A DNA stretch of 64,000 nucleotides, taken from contig DXHV01000083.1 in assembly GCA_019113165.1 (NCBI GenBank), positions 45,586 through 109,585 on the forward strand, in the 5' to 3' direction. Source of the DNA: Candidatus Desulfovibrio intestinipullorum (GTDB taxonomy: Bacteria > Desulfobacterota > Desulfovibrionia > Desulfovibrionales > Desulfovibrionaceae). This document shows positions 19,980-27,637 of the stretch, in pieces (position 1 is the stretch's first letter; each line of letters begins with the position of its first letter). Below the pieces are notes generated by a model, which ran no database searches, had not been told where the DNA came from, and saw only the letters and a program-made list of their open reading frames with translations. A program made the translations under genes and the position numbers.

Positions 19980-21077
19980 ATGGCAACCATCATCACAAAA
20001 GACTCTTTGCGCTCCAGTGTGGAAGCGGCAACCGGGGGCCTGTGCACGGTCCTGTACGATGATGCAGGGCACCCGAGCTACATGCGTGTCATACCCAAAA
20101 TGCGCATTGAGGACCTCTATCCGGATCTTGGGCTGACCGGCACGCATCCCGCCTTCATCGTGGACGGCGTGGAAAAGAGCGAGCTTTTCATTGGCATGTT
20201 CCAGGCGTCCGTTGTTGACAGCTATGCCGTCAGCCTTCCGGGCATGGATCCAACGGTCAACATCAATTTTGACACATCCCTGAACTATTGCCGCAACAAG
20301 GGCGAAGGCTGGCATTTGATGACCAACGCGGAATGGGCCCTTTTGGGCGCCCTTGGAATCAAGACCGGATTTCAGCCGCGCGGCAACACCTACTGGGGCC
20401 AGCACCACGAGCAGAAGCACGAGGTTGGTACCCTGGCCCCTGGGGCAAGCGAGCTTGGTGTGGATGACGATAGTTTGCACGGCCGCACGCTGACCGGTTC
20501 CGGCCCTGTGAGCTGGCGCCACGACAATACCCCTGCAGGCATTGCCGACCTGGTAGGCAATGTGTGGGAGTGGTGCGCTGGCCTGCGTTTGAATGCGGGC
20601 GAACTCCAGATCATTGCGGACAACAATGCGGCTGCCCATGATTGCGACATGAGCGCTGGCTCCTCGGCCTGGAGAGCGATTCTTGAGAACGGAACGCTGA
20701 CAACTCCGGGCACTGCTGATACCCTCAAGCTGGACGCGGCCGGTGAAAATGGGCTTGGGGCTCCCAAGCTCAATACCGAGATCACGAGCCAGTATCCCTC
20801 TACGGACAACAGTTCTTCCTCTTCGACCTCTTTCAAGAGTTTCACCGCAGTGGAGGGGGTAACCCCGCCACCGCTGCTCAAACTGCTGTCCCTGTATCCT
20901 ATTGATACGACCAACCCCGTGGGTAGTATCTGGATGCGCAACGCGGGAGAGCGGCTGGCTTTTCGCGGTGGCCCTTACTACAATGGGGCCGGTGCCGGCC
21001 TGTTTGCCCTCGGTCTGAATGGTACACGGACACACCGGTATCGTTCTCGGGGTTTCCGTCCCGCTTTTATCCTGTAA
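19980..21077 (+). CDS. DGR target protein, FGE-sulfatase/C-type-lectin fold with variable C-terminus
   Basis: 365 residues, probably the phage receptor-binding tip. The formylglycine-generating-enzyme fold is indicated by YCRNKGEGWHLMTNAEWALL (short blocks), the invariant GNVWEW near residue 200 and the C-terminal GFRPAF. No catalytic cysteine pair is evident, so it is a binding rather than enzymatic member. A Ser-rich stretch (TDNSSSSSTSF) precedes the last module. Codons 324-362 form the variable repeat; relative to the template, residues 345, 348, 352, 354 and 356 read Gly, Gly, His, Tyr and Ser instead of Asn, Glu, Asn, Asn and Asn. AGGAGGGG precedes the ATG. A branched hairpin follows the stop. 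Confidence 0.9.
   Translation: MATIITKDSLRSSVEAATGGLCTVLYDDAGHPSYMRVIPKMRIEDLYPDLGLTGTHPAFIVDGVEKSELFIGMFQASVVDSYAVSLPGMDPTVNINFDTSLNYCRNKGEGWHLMTNAEWALLGALGIKTGFQPRGNTYWGQHHEQKHEVGTLAPGASELGVDDDSLHGRTLTGSGPVSWRHDNTPAGIADLVGNVWEWCAGLRLNAGELQIIADNNAAAHDCDMSAGSSAWRAILENGTLTTPGTADTLKLDAAGENGLGAPKLNTEITSQYPSTDNSSSSSTSFKSFTAVEGVTPPPLLKLLSLYPIDTTNPVGSIWMRNAGERLAFRGGPYYNGAGAGLFALGLNGTRTHRYRSRGFRPAFIL
20951..21065 (+). repeat. DGR variable repeat (VR), 115 bp
   Basis: It aligns without gaps to the template at 23395-23509. Nine substitutions: template positions 62, 63, 72, 73, 83, 89, 95 and 96 are adenine, and position 94 is a G. The template has 20 adenines, so 8 of 20 adenines but only 1 of 95 other bases changed. 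The last 17 bases, GGGGTTTCCGTCCCGCT, are shared by VR, TR and most cassettes and are the likely IMH-type end. Confidence 0.92.
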
Positions 21078-21120: not shown

Positions 21121-21176
21121 TGCGGCACAAGGATAGAATCATCCTGACCGGCGCAAGCCGGTCGCCGCATTTTTTT
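21121..21176 (+). terminator. Branched hairpin with T run after the DGR target gene
   Basis: An outer stem, TGCGGC (21121-21126) with GCCGCA (21164-21169), encloses AGGAT/ATCCT (21130-21134, 21141-21145) and GACCGGC/GCCGGTC with a GCAA loop (21146-21163), and is followed by a T run. It looks like an intrinsic terminator. Known DGRs also use a GC-rich hairpin with a 4-base loop beyond VR for retrohoming, so it may have a double role, though it lies about 80 bp from VR rather than a few. Confidence 0.65.
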
Positions 21177-21191: not shown

Positions 21192-21548
21192 ATGGAAGGG
21201 GAACGCGGGCTGATTTTGCAGCAAAAATGGGAAGACTTGAGCGAGTACATCTTTACGGCCGTCCTGCGCGGCATGCCCAAGAGCGAGCGTTTCACGCTCG
21301 GCGCCGATATCCGCGCCCTTATCTGGCAGGTCGAAGAGGCGTTGATCCAGCTGTCTCTGCGCCAGGGCAATCGCTGGGCCCTTTTGAACCAGGTGGATAT
21401 CAAGGCAAAAATCTTGCTGACCATGATACGCCTTGGCATCCGTATTCGGGCAATCCCGGACAAAAGGTACGAAACCATTTCCACTCGCCTTGTGGAAATC
21501 GGCAAAATTGTCGGTGGCCTCAAGAAGGCCGGTGACGGCCGCCGCTGA
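21192..21548 (+). CDS. avd: DGR accessory variability determinant (Avd)
   Basis: 118 residues, basic and fully helical, matching the four-helix Avd family by length, position and pattern: KWEDLSEYIFTAVLRGMPKSERFTLGADIR (seen as helix 1-2 blocks), LIWQVEEALIQLSL, VDIKAKILLTMIRLGIRIRAI and a last helix RLVEIGKIVGGLKKA. Avd forms a pentamer that binds the reverse transcriptase and template RNA and is needed for mutagenic retrohoming. GGGGGAAG lies before the ATG. It stands between target and array, and the first cassette begins 26 bp after its stop. Confidence 0.9.
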   Translation: MEGERGLILQQKWEDLSEYIFTAVLRGMPKSERFTLGADIRALIWQVEEALIQLSLRQGNRWALLNQVDIKAKILLTMIRLGIRIRAIPDKRYETISTRLVEIGKIVGGLKKAGDGRR

Positions 21549-21573: not shown

Positions 21574-21688
21574 GCGGCTGGCTTTGCGCGGAGGCGGCTA
21601 CAATAATACGTCCTCTGCCGGCCTGTTTGCCCTCAATCTGAATAATGCGCGCACGAATCGCAATCGGAATGTGGGTTTCCGTCCCGCT
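21574..21688 (+). repeat. DGR cassette C1 (template-like, Asn-codon-rich)
   Basis: 115 bp, first unit of the array. Read in the VR frame it gives RLALRGGGYNNTSSAGLFAL then NLNNARTNRNRN, with eight AAT codons exactly where DGR templates carry mutable adenines. It is therefore more template-like than C2-C6 and may be a second or older TR. It differs from TR at many non-adenine positions. Confidence 0.8.
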
Positions 21689-21879
21689 CTTATCCCATAC
21701 GTCAGAGGCTCTGTGGCTACGGCTGCCGGGACGGTACGGGGATAAAAGGGATTCGTTTCCGCCCCGAGGCAAAACGGGGGAATCGCAGCAGCCCCGCGTC
21801 GCAAGTAGACAACGAAAGCGGCGTGGGGCACTTTTTGTGCGTTGGCCTGGCGCCAACCAGGGAACGGCCCACAGACGAA

Positions 21880-21994
21880 GCGGCTGGCTTGTCGCGGCGG
21901 CAGATATATCTCTGGTGCCAATGCCGGCTTTTTTGCCCTTCTTGTACGGACTACACGTGTCATGTACGCGCCGTCATTGGGTTTCCGTCCCGCT
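21880..21994 (+). repeat. DGR cassette C2 (VR-like)
   Basis: 115 bp, 306 bp after C1. Frame-preserving reading RLACRGGRYISGANAGFFAL then LVRTTRVMYAPSLGFRPA; most asparagines of C1/TR are replaced, as in a diversified VR. The conserved start GCGGCTGGCT and end GGTTTCCGTCCCGCT are intact. Confidence 0.8.
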
Positions 21995-22185
21995 TTAGCT
22001 CCAGACGTCGGAAGCTTCATGGCCATGGCCGTGAAGTCGGAACAGGGGCAAAAGGGGGCCGTTTCCGCCCCGAGGCAAAACGGGGGAATCTCAGCAGCCC
22101 CACGCCACAAGTAGACAACGAAAGTGGTGTGGGGCAATTTCCCATGCGTTGGTGCTCTGCCAACCGGGGACGGCCCAAAGACGGA

Positions 22186-22300
22186 GCGGCTGGCTTATCG
22201 CGGTGGTAGATACTCCATCGGCGCAGGCAACGGCCTTTTTGCTCTTGCCCTGGACATGGTGCGGACCTACCGCCACCGAGGGAGGGGTTTCCGTCCCGCT
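22186..22300 (+). repeat. DGR cassette C3 (VR-like)
   Basis: 115 bp, 306 bp after C2. Reads RLAYRGGRYSIGAGNGLFAL then ALDMVRTYRHRGRGFRPAF in the VR frame without stops. Followed by its own spacer copy with both hairpins. Confidence 0.8.
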
Positions 22301-22487
22301 TTCGCCTCAGACGCCGGAAGCCTTATGGTTACGGCCATGAGGACGGAATGGGGCAAAAGGGGGCTGTTTCCGCCCCAAGCAACGGGGAAATACCAGCGGC
22401 CCCACGCCATGAGTAGACAACGAAAGCGGCGTGGGGCACTTTTTGTGCGTTGGCCCAGCGCCAACCAGGGAACGGCCCATAGATGGA

Positions 22488-22599
22488 GCGGCTGGCTTGT
22501 CGCGGTGGCTATTACAATACCGTGGGATCCGGCCTGTTTGCTCTCATTCTGAACGACTTACAGACCTATCGACACCGGAATCGGGGTTTCCGTCCCGCT
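22488..22599 (+). repeat. DGR cassette C4 (VR-like, one codon shorter)
   Basis: 112 bp, 302 bp after C3. Reads RLACRGGYYNTVGSGLFAL then ILNDLQTYRHRNRGFRPAF; a single in-frame codon is missing in the first variable patch, so the frame is kept. Confidence 0.8.
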
Positions 22600-22787
22600 T
22601 TCGCCCCAGACGTCGGAAGCCTCAAGGTTATGGCCGTGAGGACGGAACGGGGCAAAAGGGGGCTGTTTCCGCCCCAGGCAACGGGGAAATACCAAGTGGC
22701 CCCACGCGGCCGGTAGACAACGAAAGCGGCGTGGGGCACTTTTCATGTGTTGGCATCAGCGCCAACCGGGGACGGCCCAAAGATGGA

Positions 22788-22902
22788 GCGGCTGGCTTTT
22801 CGCGGCGGGGACTACCGTAATACTACCGCTGACGGCCTGTTTGCCCTCAGTCTGCATTTTCCCCGAGCCACGTTATATCGGTATCGGGGTTTCCGTCCCG
22901 CT
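22788..22902 (+). repeat. DGR cassette C5 (VR-like)
   Basis: 115 bp, 300 bp after C4. Reads RLAFRGGDYRNTTADGLFAL then SLHFPRATLYRYRGFRPAL. Variation is again limited to the two patches that differ among cassettes (about positions 19-45 and 62-97). Confidence 0.8.
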
Positions 22903-23088
22903 TTAGCCCTATGCTTCAGAAGCCTTGTGGTTACGGCCATGAGGACGAAACGGGGCAAAAGGGGGCCGTTTCCGCCCCAAGCAACGGGGAAATATCAGTG
23001 GCCCCACGCCATAAGTAGACAACGAAAGCGGCGTGGGGCACTTTTTGTGCGTTGGCCCAGCGTCAACCGGGGACGGCCCAAAGTAGGA

Positions 23089-23203
23089 GCGGCTGGCTTT
23101 TCGCGGTGGAGACTACCTTGCGGGCAGCCGCAGCGGTTTGTGTGCTCTCTATTTGAATGACACTCGGACGCGCATTGCTGGCACTCGGGGTTTCCGTCCC
23201 GCT
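23089..23203 (+). repeat. DGR cassette C6 (VR-like)
   Basis: 115 bp, 301 bp after C5 and 306 bp before TR. Reads RLAFRGGDYLAGSRSGLCAL then YLNDTRTRIAGTRGFRPAF in the VR frame. Flanks are the closest to those of the TR unit. Confidence 0.8.
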
Positions 23204-23394
23204 TTCGCCCCATGCGTCAGAAGCTTCACGGTCATGGCCGTGAGGACGGAACGGGGCAAAAGGGGGCCGTTTCCGCCCCGAGGCAAAACGGGGAAATCAC
23301 AGTGGCCCCACGCGGCCGGTAGACAACGAAAGCGGCGTGGGGCAAATTCTAAGCGTTGGCTTCATGCCAACTGGGAACAGCCTAACGAAATGGA

Positions 23395-23509
23395 GCGGCT
23401 GGCTTTTCGCGGTGGCCCTTACTACAATGGGGCCGGTGCCGGCCTGTTTGCCCTCAATCTGAATGAAACACGGACAAACCGGAATCGGAATCGGGGTTTC
23501 CGTCCCGCT
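23395..23509 (+). repeat. DGR template repeat (TR)
   Basis: 115 bp directly before the reverse transcriptase gene, the usual place of a template. Identical to VR for the first 61 bases; all differences lie in the second variable patch and eight of nine are at template adenines. It encodes NLNETRTNRNRN, rich in AAT/AAC codons, the typical source of varied codons. The start GCGGCTGGCT is common to all seven cassettes. Confidence 0.92.
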
Positions 23510-23669
23510 CTCATCCCCAGGCGTCAGAAGCCTCATGACTACGGTTATGGGGCCGGCACAGGGATAAAAGGAGGCTGTTTCCATCTCGTGGCAAAACGGG
23601 AAAACTACAGCGTCCCCACGTGGCAAGTAGATGACGAAAGCGGCGTGGGGACATTCAGGGATTCAAGAT
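23510..23669 (+). ncRNA. TR-to-RT spacer, probable 3' part of the DGR template RNA
   Basis: 160 bases between TR and the RT start, similar in length to the Sp region that primes cDNA synthesis in the Bordetella phage DGR. It has a long stem-loop: GTCCCCACG at 23612-23620 pairs with CGTGGGGAC at 23644-23652 around AAGTAGATGACGAAAGC. A related spacer with the same loop follows every cassette in the array. RNA function is inferred. Confidence 0.6.
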
Positions 23670-24722
23670 ATGCCCAAAACAGCTAAGCACATCTGGCACC
23701 AAATTCTCACCTGGGACAACCTGCTCAAGGCCGCCAAAGAGGCCGCCCGCAACAAACGCTATCGGCCCGAAGTGCTGCGCTTCAACGCACGGCTTGAGGA
23801 GAACCTGCTGGAGCTGCAGAGCCTCCTGGCAACAAAACAATGGCGCCCAGGTCCATACCGCCAACTGAAGGTTTTTGAGCCCAAGCCTAGGATTGTTCAC
23901 GCCCCCTGTTACGCCGACCGGGTGGTTCATCACGCTATCGTGCAGGTGATTGGGCCCTTTTTTGAGCGCCGCTTTATTGAGCACTCATACGCCTGCCGGG
24001 TCGGCAAGGGAACGCACGCGGCCAGCGAGTATCTGGGTTCTATGCTTCGTTCCGCCGAGTCCCGGTGGGGCCGGGTGTACGTTCTGAAAGCAGACATCAG
24101 CAAGTATTTCTACAGCATCGATCACGACATTCTCATGCGCATTGTGGCCCGCACAATAGGCGATCCCGATGTGCTGGATTTGCTGCGTACCCTCGTGACC
24201 GGCACGTCTTGTATTGAAGGCAACAGGGGATTGCCCCTTGGCGCGCTGACAAGCCAGACCCTGGCAAACGTCTACCTGGACCAGCTTGATCACTACGTCA
24301 AAGATCAGCTGGGAGTCAGGTACTATGTGCGCTATATGGACGACTTTGTTCTGCTCCATAATGACAAGGCCGAATTATGGCGCTTGCTGGCCGAAATCCA
24401 GGCATTCATTGTTTGGGAGCTCCATTTGGCGCTCAACCACAAAACCCGGATTTTTCCGGCCAGCCATGGTGTCGATTTTGCTGGGTACAGGCACTGGAGT
24501 GGCTACAAACTCCCTCGCAAGCGAAATGTGCGCAGGGCCAAAAAACGCTTTGCGGGCCTTACCAGGTGCTTTGCCGCCGGCAAGGTTGACCTGGATACTG
24601 TGCGCAGTTGTGTCGCCTCTTTTGTCGGCTACATGAAGCACTGCAAAGGCTGGCGGAGCGCCGGGAGCGCACTCTCAAAACTTGTCCTTGTGCGCCCCAG
24701 CAAAGAAGAAGAAAAACAGTGA
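23670..24722 (+). CDS. DGR reverse transcriptase
   Basis: 350 residues from ATG 23670 (AGGGA 9 bases upstream; an in-frame ATG at 23631 lies inside the spacer stem-loop and has no site). RT motifs in order: VLKADISKYFYSID (catalytic Asp in motif A), RGLPLGALTSQ (residues 186-196; the LGxxxSQ form is the DGR signature instead of QGxxxSP), and RYMDD (YMDD at 222-225). A basic C-terminal thumb follows (KLPRKRNVRRAKKRF). With Avd it copies the template RNA with errors at adenines and directs the cDNA to VR. No maturase or endonuclease domain is present. Confidence 0.95.
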   Translation: MPKTAKHIWHQILTWDNLLKAAKEAARNKRYRPEVLRFNARLEENLLELQSLLATKQWRPGPYRQLKVFEPKPRIVHAPCYADRVVHHAIVQVIGPFFERRFIEHSYACRVGKGTHAASEYLGSMLRSAESRWGRVYVLKADISKYFYSIDHDILMRIVARTIGDPDVLDLLRTLVTGTSCIEGNRGLPLGALTSQTLANVYLDQLDHYVKDQLGVRYYVRYMDDFVLLHNDKAELWRLLAEIQAFIVWELHLALNHKTRIFPASHGVDFAGYRHWSGYKLPRKRNVRRAKKRFAGLTRCFAAGKVDLDTVRSCVASFVGYMKHCKGWRSAGSALSKLVLVRPSKEEEKQ

Positions 24723-25027: not shown

Positions 25028-25186
25028 GTGAGGTGCCCGCGCTGCAACAAGTTGCTGGCACGCGGCAAGGCGATCTTTATGTCTTTCAAATGCCCACGCT
25101 GTGGCACATTTTACGAGCTGAGGACCACGAGCCCCAACCATGAGCCCCAAGAGAGCCATGGAGATCAGCAGACAAATGACCGATGA
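25028..25186 (+). CDS. com: Com-like zinc-ribbon translational regulator
   Basis: 52 residues from GTG 25028, which has AGGAG 9 bases upstream; an in-frame ATG at 25007 would add seven residues but has no ribosome site. Two CxxC pairs, RCPRCNKLL and KCPRCGTFYEL, form a zinc ribbon like that of Mu Com, which binds the mom mRNA and opens its start site. The last 47 bases overlap the following methylase gene in another frame, as com overlaps mom in Mu. Too short for many automatic gene callers. Confidence 0.82.
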   Translation: MRCPRCNKLLARGKAIFMSFKCPRCGTFYELRTTSPNHEPQESHGDQQTNDR

Positions 25187-25964
25187 TGAAATCAGGCAGA
25201 TGCGTTCGCCCTTGACCGGGTGGATGGGCGGTAAAAGTCAACTGTCAAGACGCATCATTCCTCAAATCCCTGAACACCTGTGCTACGTTGAGCCCTTTGC
25301 AGGAGCCGCCTGGGTATTCTTTCGCAAAGCGGAGTCCCAGGTGGAGGTGCTCAACGATATCAATCATGAGCTTGTGACATTCTACAGGTGTGTTCAGCAC
25401 CATCTCGAGGAATTTATCAGGTATTTCAAATGGGTACTGATATCCCGAGATGAATTTGAGCGCTTGAAGCGAGTGGACCCGAGCACTTTAACGGATATCC
25501 AGCGTGCGGCGCGTTTCTACTACATACAACAGCAGTGCTTTGGCGGGAGACTCAGGTCTCCAACCTTTGGCTATGCCGCTGTTCGGGCCCCCAAGTTCAA
25601 CCTGCTGAGGATTGAGGAAACCCTCTCGGAAGCCCATGTTCGCCTGGCGCGTGTGTACGTTGAATGCCTGCCGTACAGTGAAATCATCAAACGCTATGAC
25701 AAGCCGACGACCTTTTTCTACTGTGACCCGCCCTATGAGGGCTGTGAGGCATATTATGGGAAGGGCGTTTTTGAGCAAGATGATTTTGAAAAGCTGGCCA
25801 ATCAGCTGGCAGGCATTCAGGGGAAATTCCTATTGTCCCTGAATGATTCCCCGCTCGTTCGCAGACTCTTTGCTTCCTTCAGTATTGAGCCCGTGAGCGT
25901 GGTCTACTCTTGCTCCAATGGCTCAAACAAAAAAGTCGGCGAAGTCTTGATCAAGAATTTCTAG
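25140..25964 (+). CDS. DNA adenine methylase (Dam / D12 class)
   Basis: 274 residues if started at ATG 25140. N6-adenine methyltransferase motifs: PLTGWMGGKSQLSRRI (AdoMet-binding FxGxK-like motif), ECLPYSEI, and the catalytic DPPY in FFYCDPPYEGC; the N-terminal YVEPFAGAAWVFF is the conserved PFxG block. It should modify phage DNA, probably against host restriction, taking the place of mom. The start is buried in com and has no ribosome site nearby, which suggests translation depends on Com. ATGs at 25158 and 25176 are alternatives. A hairpin follows the stop. Confidence 0.9.
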   Translation: MSPKRAMEISRQMTDDEIRQMRSPLTGWMGGKSQLSRRIIPQIPEHLCYVEPFAGAAWVFFRKAESQVEVLNDINHELVTFYRCVQHHLEEFIRYFKWVLISRDEFERLKRVDPSTLTDIQRAARFYYIQQQCFGGRLRSPTFGYAAVRAPKFNLLRIEETLSEAHVRLARVYVECLPYSEIIKRYDKPTTFFYCDPPYEGCEAYYGKGVFEQDDFEKLANQLAGIQGKFLLSLNDSPLVRRLFASFSIEPVSVVYSCSNGSNKKVGEVLIKNF

Positions 25965-26104: not shown

Positions 26105-26719
26105 ACAAGCCACAGCACATGTAGGAAGAAGACGTTGGGCAGGGTGTCCTGTAAGGGATGCCCTGCCCTTTCCGGCTTTGTGACACCTTGCAGGGACAGG
26201 AAGTCCGGCAGGGACGGTCTTCAGGGAGCGGGCATGGCACGCAAAACCTTTTTCCTCGCACGGCTCTGCAGGGGCGAATGTGCAGACAGGCTTTCCTGCT
26301 GGAGCCGGCTGCCAAGCTCTCCCTGGGAACGTGCTGTGCGCGAAAAGGGATCGGGATGGACAACAACGCTTCGCAATGCGGATATTGCCGACTACTTCAG
26401 GAGGCACGTGCTTGCCTGATGCTTCTGCCTGCAAAAAGCCCTCTTCAGGAGGGCTTTTTGCGTTTCCATGAGGGAAGCGTCTCCCGTGTCGGGTCTGCCT
26501 GGCCCGGGGCCCTGCGTCCGTCCAAGGCAGCAGACGGGCGTTATGGGGACATTGGGTGAACCATTGCGGAGTTCTTTAGTCGTATTTTATTTTTGTGTCG
26601 CAATCCCGAATTGTTAGCCTGAAAGCTCCGGATCCGGGGCTGGAAATTTCATGTGACTTGCGTACAAGATGGCTTTTTTCCTTGCCACAGGGCACCAATC
26701 AGCATACATTCGCACTACT
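26105..26719. other. Phage-host junction region without a convincing gene
   Basis: About 615 bp after the end repeats. It has a GGGCAGGG/CCCTGCCC hairpin (26137-26144, 26161-26168) followed by TTT, and a strong terminator at 26433-26459. Open frames here are short, Cys/Arg-rich and lack ribosome sites, so no protein is called. The region probably held the 3' end and terminator of a host unit and the nadK promoter. Confidence 0.5.
26433..26459 (+). terminator. Strong intrinsic terminator
   Basis: AAAAAGCCCTC (26433-26443) and GAGGGCTTTTT (26449-26459) form a perfect 11-bp stem with loop TTCAG. It works in both directions and lies between the prophage and nadK. Confidence 0.88.
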
Positions 26720-27637
26720 ATGGATACCATCTCTCTCCGCAACGTTCTCATTGTGACCAAGGCCCGCGTCCCCGAAGCCGAGGACCTGGGCATTGTCATT
26801 GCCAAGTGGATGCGCGAGCGCTGCCAGGACGTGAACATCATTCCTGCCGAACAGGGCTCTCCGTTCTACAACGATCCCGAACTGGATCTCATTGTGGTTC
26901 TGGGCGGGGACGGCACCATACTTGGCGTGGCCCGCCATGTCATAGGCCGCAAGATTCCCCTTGTCTGCATCAACTTCGGCAGGGTGGGCTTCCTCTCGGA
27001 CATAGAGCCGGACTCCTGGGAGGAAGGGCTCTCGGCCATGCTCAGGTCCAGGGACTACCGCTCTGCGGCCGGCCTGCGCTGGACGCTGCTGCGCTACGGC
27101 CACCACGTTGCCGGAGGCTATGCGGTCAATGACGTGGTTTTAAGCCGCTCGGCCATGGCCCGTCTGGTCTATGCCGACATCTACACGGACGGCGAGCTCA
27201 TGGGCGCCGTGCGCGCCGACGGCTTTCTGCTCAGCACGGCCATAGGCAGCTCAGGCTATTCCGTCGCTGCCAACGGCCCGCTCCTCTTTCCCACCCTCAA
27301 TGCCCTGGCCTTTGTGCCCATCTGCCCCTTTCTGAACACCATTCCGCCCATGGTCTTTCCCTGCCACACGGTCTTCCGCTTCCACCTGCTGCCCGGCACA
27401 ACGGAGAGCTACCTCACCGTGGACGGCCAGGAAGGCCATCTCATGCAGACCAACGACATTGTGGAAATAGAGGGTATCCCGGACTGCGTGCGCTTCCTTG
27501 GCAAGGGCCTCTCCTTCATCGAGCGCCTGCGCACGCGCAGCTTCATTCTCCAGAATCCGCTCAACTACAAGGACAAGCGGGAGACGCCGCCCAGACTGCA
27601 GGATGTGAGCGAGCAGAAGGCCGGGCCGCAGAGCTGA
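26720..27637 (+). CDS. nadK: NAD kinase
   Basis: 305 residues. Phosphorylates NAD to NADP with ATP. Diagnostic motifs: the N-terminal NVLIVTKARVPEAE, LGGDGTILGVAR (GGDGT near residues 64-68), and the NDVVLSRS motif followed by DGELMGAVRADGFLLSTAIGSSGYS (read in short blocks), which is the substrate-binding GSxxY segment. ATG 26720 gives the usual short lead before the first strand; an ATG at 26669 is possible but would add 17 atypical residues. No strong ribosome site is visible for either. The gene starts a host unit with the DUF89-like gene 75 bp downstream. Confidence 0.93.
   Translation: MDTISLRNVLIVTKARVPEAEDLGIVIAKWMRERCQDVNIIPAEQGSPFYNDPELDLIVVLGGDGTILGVARHVIGRKIPLVCINFGRVGFLSDIEPDSWEEGLSAMLRSRDYRSAAGLRWTLLRYGHHVAGGYAVNDVVLSRSAMARLVYADIYTDGELMGAVRADGFLLSTAIGSSGYSVAANGPLLFPTLNALAFVPICPFLNTIPPMVFPCHTVFRFHLLPGTTESYLTVDGQEGHLMQTNDIVEIEGIPDCVRFLGKGLSFIERLRTRSFILQNPLNYKDKRETPPRLQDVSEQKAGPQS

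What the first reader, a model, noticed from the sequence alone, without database searches (positions are those of the whole stretch)
21574..23509. Seven-unit tandem array of DGR template/variable cassettes between avd and the reverse transcriptase
Known DGRs normally have one template repeat beside the RT gene. Here seven cassettes, all beginning GCGGCTGGCT and ending GGTTTCCGTCCCGCT, start at 21574, 21880, 22186, 22488, 22788, 23089 and 23395 (period 300-306 bp). Six are exactly 115 bp and one is 112 bp, a whole codon shorter. All keep the VR reading frame and vary mainly in the same two patches. This looks like a store of alternative templates or of former VR sequences, so a phage could switch between ready-made receptor tips as well as mutate one.
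Basis: partly seen in the sequence, partly recalled or inferred. Interest (0 to 1): 0.95.

Follow-up and report, generated by a model that had tools for sequence, protein, structure and literature searches.

The report
DGR with seven interchangeable templates
A prophage in a Desulfovibrio-type bacterium carries seven complete template units in a row, where known systems of this kind usually have one, and comparison with related phages indicates that different units have been copied into the same predicted receptor-binding protein, so the phage would likely be able to switch tips as well as mutate them.

Summary
The array is real: seven cassettes at the stated places, 115 bp (one 112), between avd and a DGR reverse transcriptase (RT), all open in the frame of the variable region (VR). 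Each is followed by its own spacer RNA, kept by compensatory base changes, so these are seven whole template units, not decaying scraps. The window's VR comes from the last unit: mismatches at 8 of 20 template adenines, 1 of 95 other bases. Other units have been donors elsewhere. A near-identical target protein (4 of 327 residues different outside the VR) carries the allele of unit 3, 2 of 37 residues different. A same-genus phage in a single-contig genome has five units and a VR copied from its second. Eight more array loci lie in a distant RT clade, mostly MAGs named Bacilli or Tenericutes. In 9 of 9 array loci with a VR a donor could be named: one unit in eight, two joined units in one; only the window uses the RT-proximal unit. 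Units 2-6 hold fewer adenines (13-18 against 20) and should install more nearly fixed alleles. Best reading: a multi-template DGR, a new variant of a known kind. Transcription, live switching and write-back were not tested.

The parts
19980..21077 (+). target gene: DGR variable protein, predicted receptor-binding tail protein, 365 aa
   Evidence: PF03781 E 3.3e-8, phrog_2889 E 2e-130; AlphaFold model matches Thermus aquaticus DGR variable protein 5vf4, TM 0.86, 48% identity; profile hit E 2.7e-137
20951..21065 (+). variable region (VR), the single recipient copy
   Evidence: from C7 by adenine-site changes, 8/20 A and 1/95 non-A
21145..21164 (+). GC-rich hairpin with T tail about 80 nt after the VR; terminator or DGR target hairpin, not decided
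21192..21548 (+). avd, accessory variability determinant
   Evidence: bAvd PF22296 E 3.2e-18, phrog_3206 E 7.5e-18
21574..21688 (+). cassette C1, adenine-rich (20 A, 8 AAY codons)
21689..21830 (+). spacer RNA of unit 1
   Evidence: Rfam RT-14 42.2 bits, below the gathering score 48.1; hold-out model R2 125.1 bits
21880..21994 (+). cassette C2 (13 A, 1 AAY codon)
21995..22136 (+). spacer RNA of unit 2
   Evidence: R2 131.9 bits
22186..22300 (+). cassette C3 (15 A, 1 AAY codon); its allele is the VR of protein P0001
22301..22438 (+). spacer RNA of unit 3
   Evidence: R2 112.6 bits
22488..22599 (+). cassette C4 (18 A, 3 AAY codons), one codon shorter
22600..22738 (+). spacer RNA of unit 4
   Evidence: R2 125 bits
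22788..22902 (+). cassette C5 (14 A, 1 AAY codon)
22903..23040 (+). spacer RNA of unit 5
   Evidence: R2 114.2 bits
23089..23203 (+). cassette C6 (13 A, 1 AAY codon)
23204..23344 (+). spacer RNA of unit 6
   Evidence: R2 143.5 bits
23395..23509 (+). cassette C7 (20 A, 6 AAY codons), donor of the present VR
23510..23652 (+). spacer RNA of unit 7
   Evidence: R2 144.6 bits
21841..21857 (+). leader hairpin GTTGGC...GCCAAC before C2; similar hairpins before C3-C7, none before C1; a GGG(A/G)AC motif starts about 20 nt before all seven cassettes
23670..24722 (+). DGR reverse transcriptase (ORF opens at 23631; start at 23670 inferred, since the first 13 codons overlap the unit-7 RNA)
   Evidence: RVT_1 PF00078 E 2.6e-23, phrog_1423 E 2.9e-134; the only match of this RT in the genome

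Best explanation
This prophage DGR holds seven complete template units in tandem, each a template repeat with its own structured spacer RNA, and its reverse transcriptase likely copies any one of them, with errors at adenines, into the single variable region of a predicted receptor-binding protein. Shown: seven units with open cassettes and covarying spacers; a VR that matches C7 except at adenines in the window; the C3 allele as the VR of a near-identical target protein; donors at other positions in related arrays, once two units joined. Inferred: every unit is transcribed, bound by RT-Avd at its spacer and self-primed there, as described for the single template of BPP-1 (PMC12875486, passages). 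Adenine-rich units (C1, C7) would then act as randomisers, and units with fewer adenines (C2, C3, C5, C6, less so C4) would install more nearly fixed alleles. Partial homing over an older VR would give mosaics. Weaker inference: the units with fewer adenines were made when mutated cDNA, or the VR itself, was copied back into the array.
For: (1) Donor differs by locus: Viterbi assignment names unit 7/7 in the window, 2/5 in L180, 3/5 in L051, 2/6 in L064, 1/5 in L071, 2/5 in L043, 1/11 in L059, one distal unit of four in L036, and units 6+1 of 11 in L055. Mismatches at donor adenines against other bases: window 8/20 vs 1/95; L180 7/21 vs 1/89; L051 11/27 vs 1/87; L064 17/29 vs 0/83; L043 13/28 vs 3/82; L036 16/35 vs 1/100; L055 6/13 vs 1/46 and 11/20 vs 0/62. 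(2) P0001 differs from the window target at 4 of 327 residues outside the VR, but its tail is C3 with 2 of 37 residues different; the next best of 12 units has 11 different. P0045 fits unit D5 of L180 with 4 of 37, next best 11. (3) Spacers of the seven units: 94.4% of pair cells paired against 36-50% when slid, 11 of 33 pairs with two-sided changes against 1-3 slid; 0 of 500 shuffles as high for four of five measures, 4 of 500 for the fifth. A model built without the window finds all seven at 113-145 bits; the next match has 12. (4) No stop in 7 of 7 cassettes; 15 of 38 codons keep one amino acid, against a mean of 0.9 and a maximum of 5 in 5000 random placements; nine of the 15 are identical to the base and six vary only silently. 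(5) Sites that are A in C1 and C7 are changed in C2-C6 at 44/79, other sites of the same span at 56/194 (p 3e-5); in L180 57/96 vs 50/200 (p 1e-8). (6) Arrays recur in a distant RT clade.
Against: The window alone shows only C7 as donor. One of the two P0001 differences from C3 is not at a template adenine, so copying in the other direction, or a diverged C3 in that phage, is possible; its array was not seen. Being stop-free is weak evidence: 5.2% of random placements gave no stop in seven units, 16.5% in the five of L180. Codons identical to the base at the cassette ends may be kept as DNA for homing, not as protein. Non-adenine sites in the cassettes are also much changed (56/194), so adenine mutagenesis alone did not make them; in C4 adenines changed no more than other sites (3/15 vs 10/38). 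A test on third codon bases was not specific (32/40 vs control 27/34). The structure tested came from an alignment that held these units. Unit 1's Rfam RT-14 score is below the gathering score. No RNA or population reads were available; the terminator scan found no excess (4 vs 4.5 expected). In L180, L059 and L071 the target gene is broken just before or in the VR, so some arrays may sit in failing prophages. In L071 the VR equals its donor at all 16 adenines and in L059 at 9 of 10, which plain gene conversion would also explain.
Confidence: 0.8

Rival explanations
1. Passive tandem duplication: only the RT-proximal unit C7 is a template; C1-C6 are duplicates that drift.
For: The window's VR comes from C7. 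Most relatives have one unit: of 12 family genomes with an RNA match, 10 have one.
Against: Two-sided pair changes in the spacers, silent framework changes in the cassettes, the C3 allele in another target's VR, non-proximal donors in 8 of 9 array loci.
Confidence: 0.07
2. Silent-cassette gene conversion: ordinary homologous recombination, not reverse transcription, moves cassettes into the VR, as in the Borrelia vls system.
For: L071 VR is 113/113 identical to its unit, adenines included, and L059 VR differs at one adenine and one T run; window cassettes share exact ends.
Against: In 7 of 9 loci the VR differs from its donor mainly at adenines; RT and avd are open in the window and every unit keeps the spacer RNA, which recombination would not need.
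Confidence: 0.1
3. The units serve different VRs in other genes or other prophages.
For: DGRs with several TRs and several VRs are reported (PMC6642488, section 13).
Against: The VR as a DNA query finds only itself and six of the seven cassettes in the genome, all at this locus; one RT match only. Each cassette was not searched on its own.
Confidence: 0.03
4. Assembly artefact.
For: The host assembly has 87 contigs.
Against: Units differ by 10-30% in spacers and lie inside a long contig; an array is present in a single-contig genome and in other assemblies.
Confidence: 0.01

Closest known systems
BPP-1-type diversity-generating retroelement (DGR)
   Same: RT, avd, spacer RNA after the template, adenine-specific template-to-VR changes, C-type-lectin-fold target
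   Different: seven template units for one VR instead of one; units differ in adenine content and in fixed residues
DGRs with more than one TR (Yan et al. 2019, PMC6642488, section 13 read)
   Same: more than one template in one DGR: 216 of 271 multi-VR DGRs have one TR, so some have more
   Different: the examples given have several VRs (two TRs and six VRs; six TRs and 91 TR-VR pairs with few adenine changes); no tandem array feeding one VR is described in the section read
RT-14 RNA (Rfam RF02921)
   Same: the spacer of unit 1 resembles it; single-TR relatives L089 and L091 and array locus L055 pass its gathering score
   Different: the related spacer stands in seven tandem copies; unit 1 is the only window unit listed for RT-14, below the gathering score
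Borrelia vlsE silent cassettes (PMC2632889, abstract read)
   Same: works like it: silent partial copies feed one expressed site, and variants with stop codons occur
   Different: donor copying here bears the adenine mark of a DGR reverse transcriptase in 7 of 9 loci and each donor carries an RNA element; not a member of that family
Thermus aquaticus DGR variable protein TaqVP (PDB 5vf4)
   Same: target fold, TM 0.86, 48% identity
   Different: here in a phage tail gene cluster with a multi-template DGR

Membership tests
Diversity-generating retroelement | DGR-type reverse transcriptase | tested here: met
   phrog_1423 E 2.9e-134, RVT_1; BPP-1 bRT is a tblastn match at 36.5%; LGxxxSQ and YMDD seen in the sequence (meaning of the motifs recalled)
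Diversity-generating retroelement | avd beside the RT | tested here: met
   bAvd PF22296
Diversity-generating retroelement | VR differs from a template mainly at template adenines | tested here: met
   8/20 A, 1/95 non-A, p 1.7e-6
Diversity-generating retroelement | structured spacer RNA after the template | tested here: met
Diversity-generating retroelement | target with the fold of DGR variable proteins | tested here: met
   matches 5vf4
Diversity-generating retroelement | hairpin 4-34 bp after the VR with a GRNA loop (phage DGRs, PMC3240598 passages) | tested here: inconclusive
   an 8-pair stem with loop GCAA lies about 80 bp after the VR and has a T tail
Diversity-generating retroelement | one template per VR, as in the usual form (not required for membership) | tested here: not met
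   seven units for one VR; hence a variant
Diversity-generating retroelement | active retrohoming | not testable with these tools
   needs cDNA or VR read data
RT-14 RNA RF02921 | score at or above 48.1 bits | tested here: not met
   window unit 1 42.2 bits; met in L089, L091 and L055
vls-type silent-cassette gene conversion | non-mutagenic copying by recombination | tested here: not met
   adenine-biased differences in 7 of 9 loci, the window included; L071 and L059 would fit

The most novel reading that the evidence does not exclude
A genetic memory written by reverse transcription: VR alleles made by adenine mutagenesis are copied back into spare template units, stored as adenine-poor RNA-coded cassettes, and later re-read, singly or as mosaics, to restore proven receptor tips; in the Bacilli group the first unit has become a dedicated OFF template that shuts the target off by a stop codon.
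Probability: 0.35. Interest if true: 0.95.

Novelty: new variant of a known kind. Interest (0 to 1): 0.87.

Why it matters
DGRs are usually treated as one-template randomisers without memory. An array of interchangeable templates would let a phage combine random search with a bank of pre-set tips, and would join two ways of making diversity that are otherwise separate: reverse-transcription mutagenesis and silent-cassette switching. It makes clear tests possible: which unit made each VR, whether arrays grow or record, and how an RT chooses among similar RNAs. A survey that keeps one TR per RT could miss such arrays.

Tried and rejected
Third-base (NNY) test for an adenine-mutagenesis origin of C2-C6: 32/40, but other changed codons gave 27/34, so not used. 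Terminator scan: no excess. Other recipients in the genome: the VR as query finds none. Repeats at L037 were dropped from the arrays because they lie in a 763-aa ORF after the RT. L075 was dropped because its repeats are scattered over the locus, not tandem. Viral-contig scans with the RTs of L051 and L055 and with a spacer pattern gave no relatives; a scan with the target found none closer than 49%; a scan with the L180 RT brought mostly records already held. Phage records held no close relative of the locus (3% of it covered at best; RT matches all under 60%). One literature search returned nothing and the RT-14 search gave mostly HIV papers.

Full report
What is there. Eight copies of one 112-115-bp sequence stand in a row on the plus strand. 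The first, 20951-21065, is the 3' end of a 365-aa gene and is the VR. The other seven lie between avd (21192-21548) and an RT gene. Pfam and PHROG name the RT, avd and an FGE-sulfatase-like target. An AlphaFold model of the target (mean pLDDT 79) has as its best solved match the Thermus aquaticus DGR variable protein 5vf4, TM 0.86. The gene lies after sheath, minor-tail (tape-measure type) and baseplate-like genes, so a tail receptor-binding role is predicted. The host belongs to the same genus as G075, whose 4,610-bp contig agrees in length and RT position with that of a Desulfovibrio sp. MAG (L009). The genome has one match to this RT, and the VR as a query finds only this locus.

Seven units, not seven fragments. 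After every cassette follow about 140 bp that align across units. On the seven window units the consensus structure pairs in 94.4% of cells, against 36-50% with the partner slid, and 11 of 33 pairs have changes on both sides, against 1-3 slid. That structure came from an alignment of 17 sequences that included these seven. As a check, a covariance model built from 12 sequences without the window finds exactly these seven places at 113-145 bits; the next match has 12 bits. The RNA resembles Rfam RT-14: unit 1 scores 42.2 bits, below the gathering score, while relatives L089, L091 and L055 pass it. Six units have a leader hairpin and all seven a GGG(A/G)AC motif before the cassette. In BPP-1 the spacer recruits RT-Avd and primes cDNA (PMC12875486, passages), so each unit has the parts expected of a template.

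Cassettes keep coding sense. All seven are open, though 5.2% of random placements would give that too. Six framework codons vary only silently, and 15 of 38 codons keep one amino acid, against at most 5 in 5000 random placements; nine of these are identical to the base, at or near the ends, and may be kept as DNA for homing. Among codons with at most two amino acids 16 of 23 changes are at the third base, among the others 32 of 103; this split was made after seeing the data. The frame could matter through transfer into the VR (inference). C1 and C7 are adenine-rich (20 A each, 8 and 6 AAY codons); C2-C6 have 13, 15, 18, 14 and 13 A and 1-3 AAY codons. Sites that are A in both rich units are changed in the others at 44/79, other sites of the span at 56/194; C4 alone shows no such excess. 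Within C2-C6 the spacers are 82-90% identical and the cassettes 54-69%.

Which unit made the VR. In the window it is C7 (8/20 A, 1/95 other). In L180 (same genus, single-contig genome, five units) it is unit 2 (7/21, 1/89), not the RT-proximal unit (9/16, 22/94). Among 160 RT loci fetched, 131 had 1500 bp or more before the RT; 8 loci passed a tandem-repeat test, of which L037 was dropped; L036, with two units at each end of its record, was added by eye. Of these eight array loci L038 has no VR identified in the stretch held. For the other seven plus the window and L180, all 9 could be assigned: eight to one unit with 0-3 non-adenine mismatches, L055 to two joined units (1/46 and 0/62 non-adenine). 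Only the window uses the RT-proximal unit. The adenine mark is clear in 7 of 9; L071 (0/16) and L059 (1/10) do not show it.

The sibling protein. A protein search listed 120 of 2004 matches; 96 had the tail motif and were scored. P0001, from another 113-kb contig, differs from the window target at 4 of 327 residues outside the VR, yet its VR is C3 with 2 of 37 residues different, against 11 or more for every other unit. One difference is an adenine change from C3, the other is not. So a non-proximal unit with few adenines and the VR of a near-identical target hold the same allele. Donation from C3 is the simpler reading; write-back from VR to C3 is the other. P0045 fits unit D5 of L180 with 4 of 37, next best 11. 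The other tails mostly fit the adenine-rich D1 best, with 1-4 unexplained residues, which says little.

Spread. In 288 genomes of the family, 12 have an RNA match; the window has seven, G052 five, the other ten one each, some of them weak. On a FastTree of 114 RTs (155 before near-copies were dropped) the eight other array loci fall in one 36-row clade and the window and L180 in another; the label needs at least six changes, but rows counted as 'no array' include cut contigs. In L051 the array lies before a 118-aa ORF and the RT rather than after avd (that ORF was not tested as avd).

Known or new. Passages of surveys mention DGRs with several VRs (PMC3521204), some with more than one TR, among them six TRs with 91 TR-VR pairs and few adenine changes (PMC6642488, section 13), or several TR types across a population (PMC4891356). 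Passages found in PMC8144416, PMC10907252 and PMC11792537 mention no TR array. I saw no tandem TR array that feeds one VR in the listings of searches. The library lacks preprints and most subscription journals, and a large 2018 survey I recall was not held. The system is a DGR by five tested features and departs from the usual form in template number. It works like vls silent cassettes (PMC2632889, abstract) but is not one.

Limits. No transcripts, no reads, no experiment. Copying direction for C3, origin of the units with few adenines and live switching are inferences.

Noticed in passing
L071 5838-5950 and 6996-7108; L059 4533-4640 and 5185-5291: The VR equals the first array unit (113/113 in L071; one A change and one T-run difference in L059), which is T-rich and carries an in-frame stop, so the target ORF ends inside the VR. 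T-rich first units with in-frame stops also stand in L051, L064 and L043, 5 of 5 looked at: a possible OFF template.
   Followed up: partly
L180 5710-5835: The target gene is out of frame just before its VR; that stretch matches the leader of unit 1 while the VR body matches unit 2, as if two homing events were laid over each other.
   Followed up: partly
L055 140-280: VR is a mosaic: first 59 bases fit unit 6, the rest unit 1.
   Followed up: yes
L010 1780-3100; protein P0046: Target followed at once by the spacer RNA and RT with no avd match; P0046 reads from an N-rich repeat into other sequence that looks like spacer. Looks like deletion between VR and template.
   Followed up: no
window 25140-25964: D12-class adenine-specific DNA methyltransferase right after the RT, then an NAD kinase gene at 26669-27637, which may mark the prophage end.
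   Followed up: no
L091 4039-4124: sRNA-Xcc1 match, 74.7 bits, after the RT.
   Followed up: no
L038 37-8648: Largest array seen, 21 exact end motifs before the RT; no VR identified in the stretch held.
   Followed up: no
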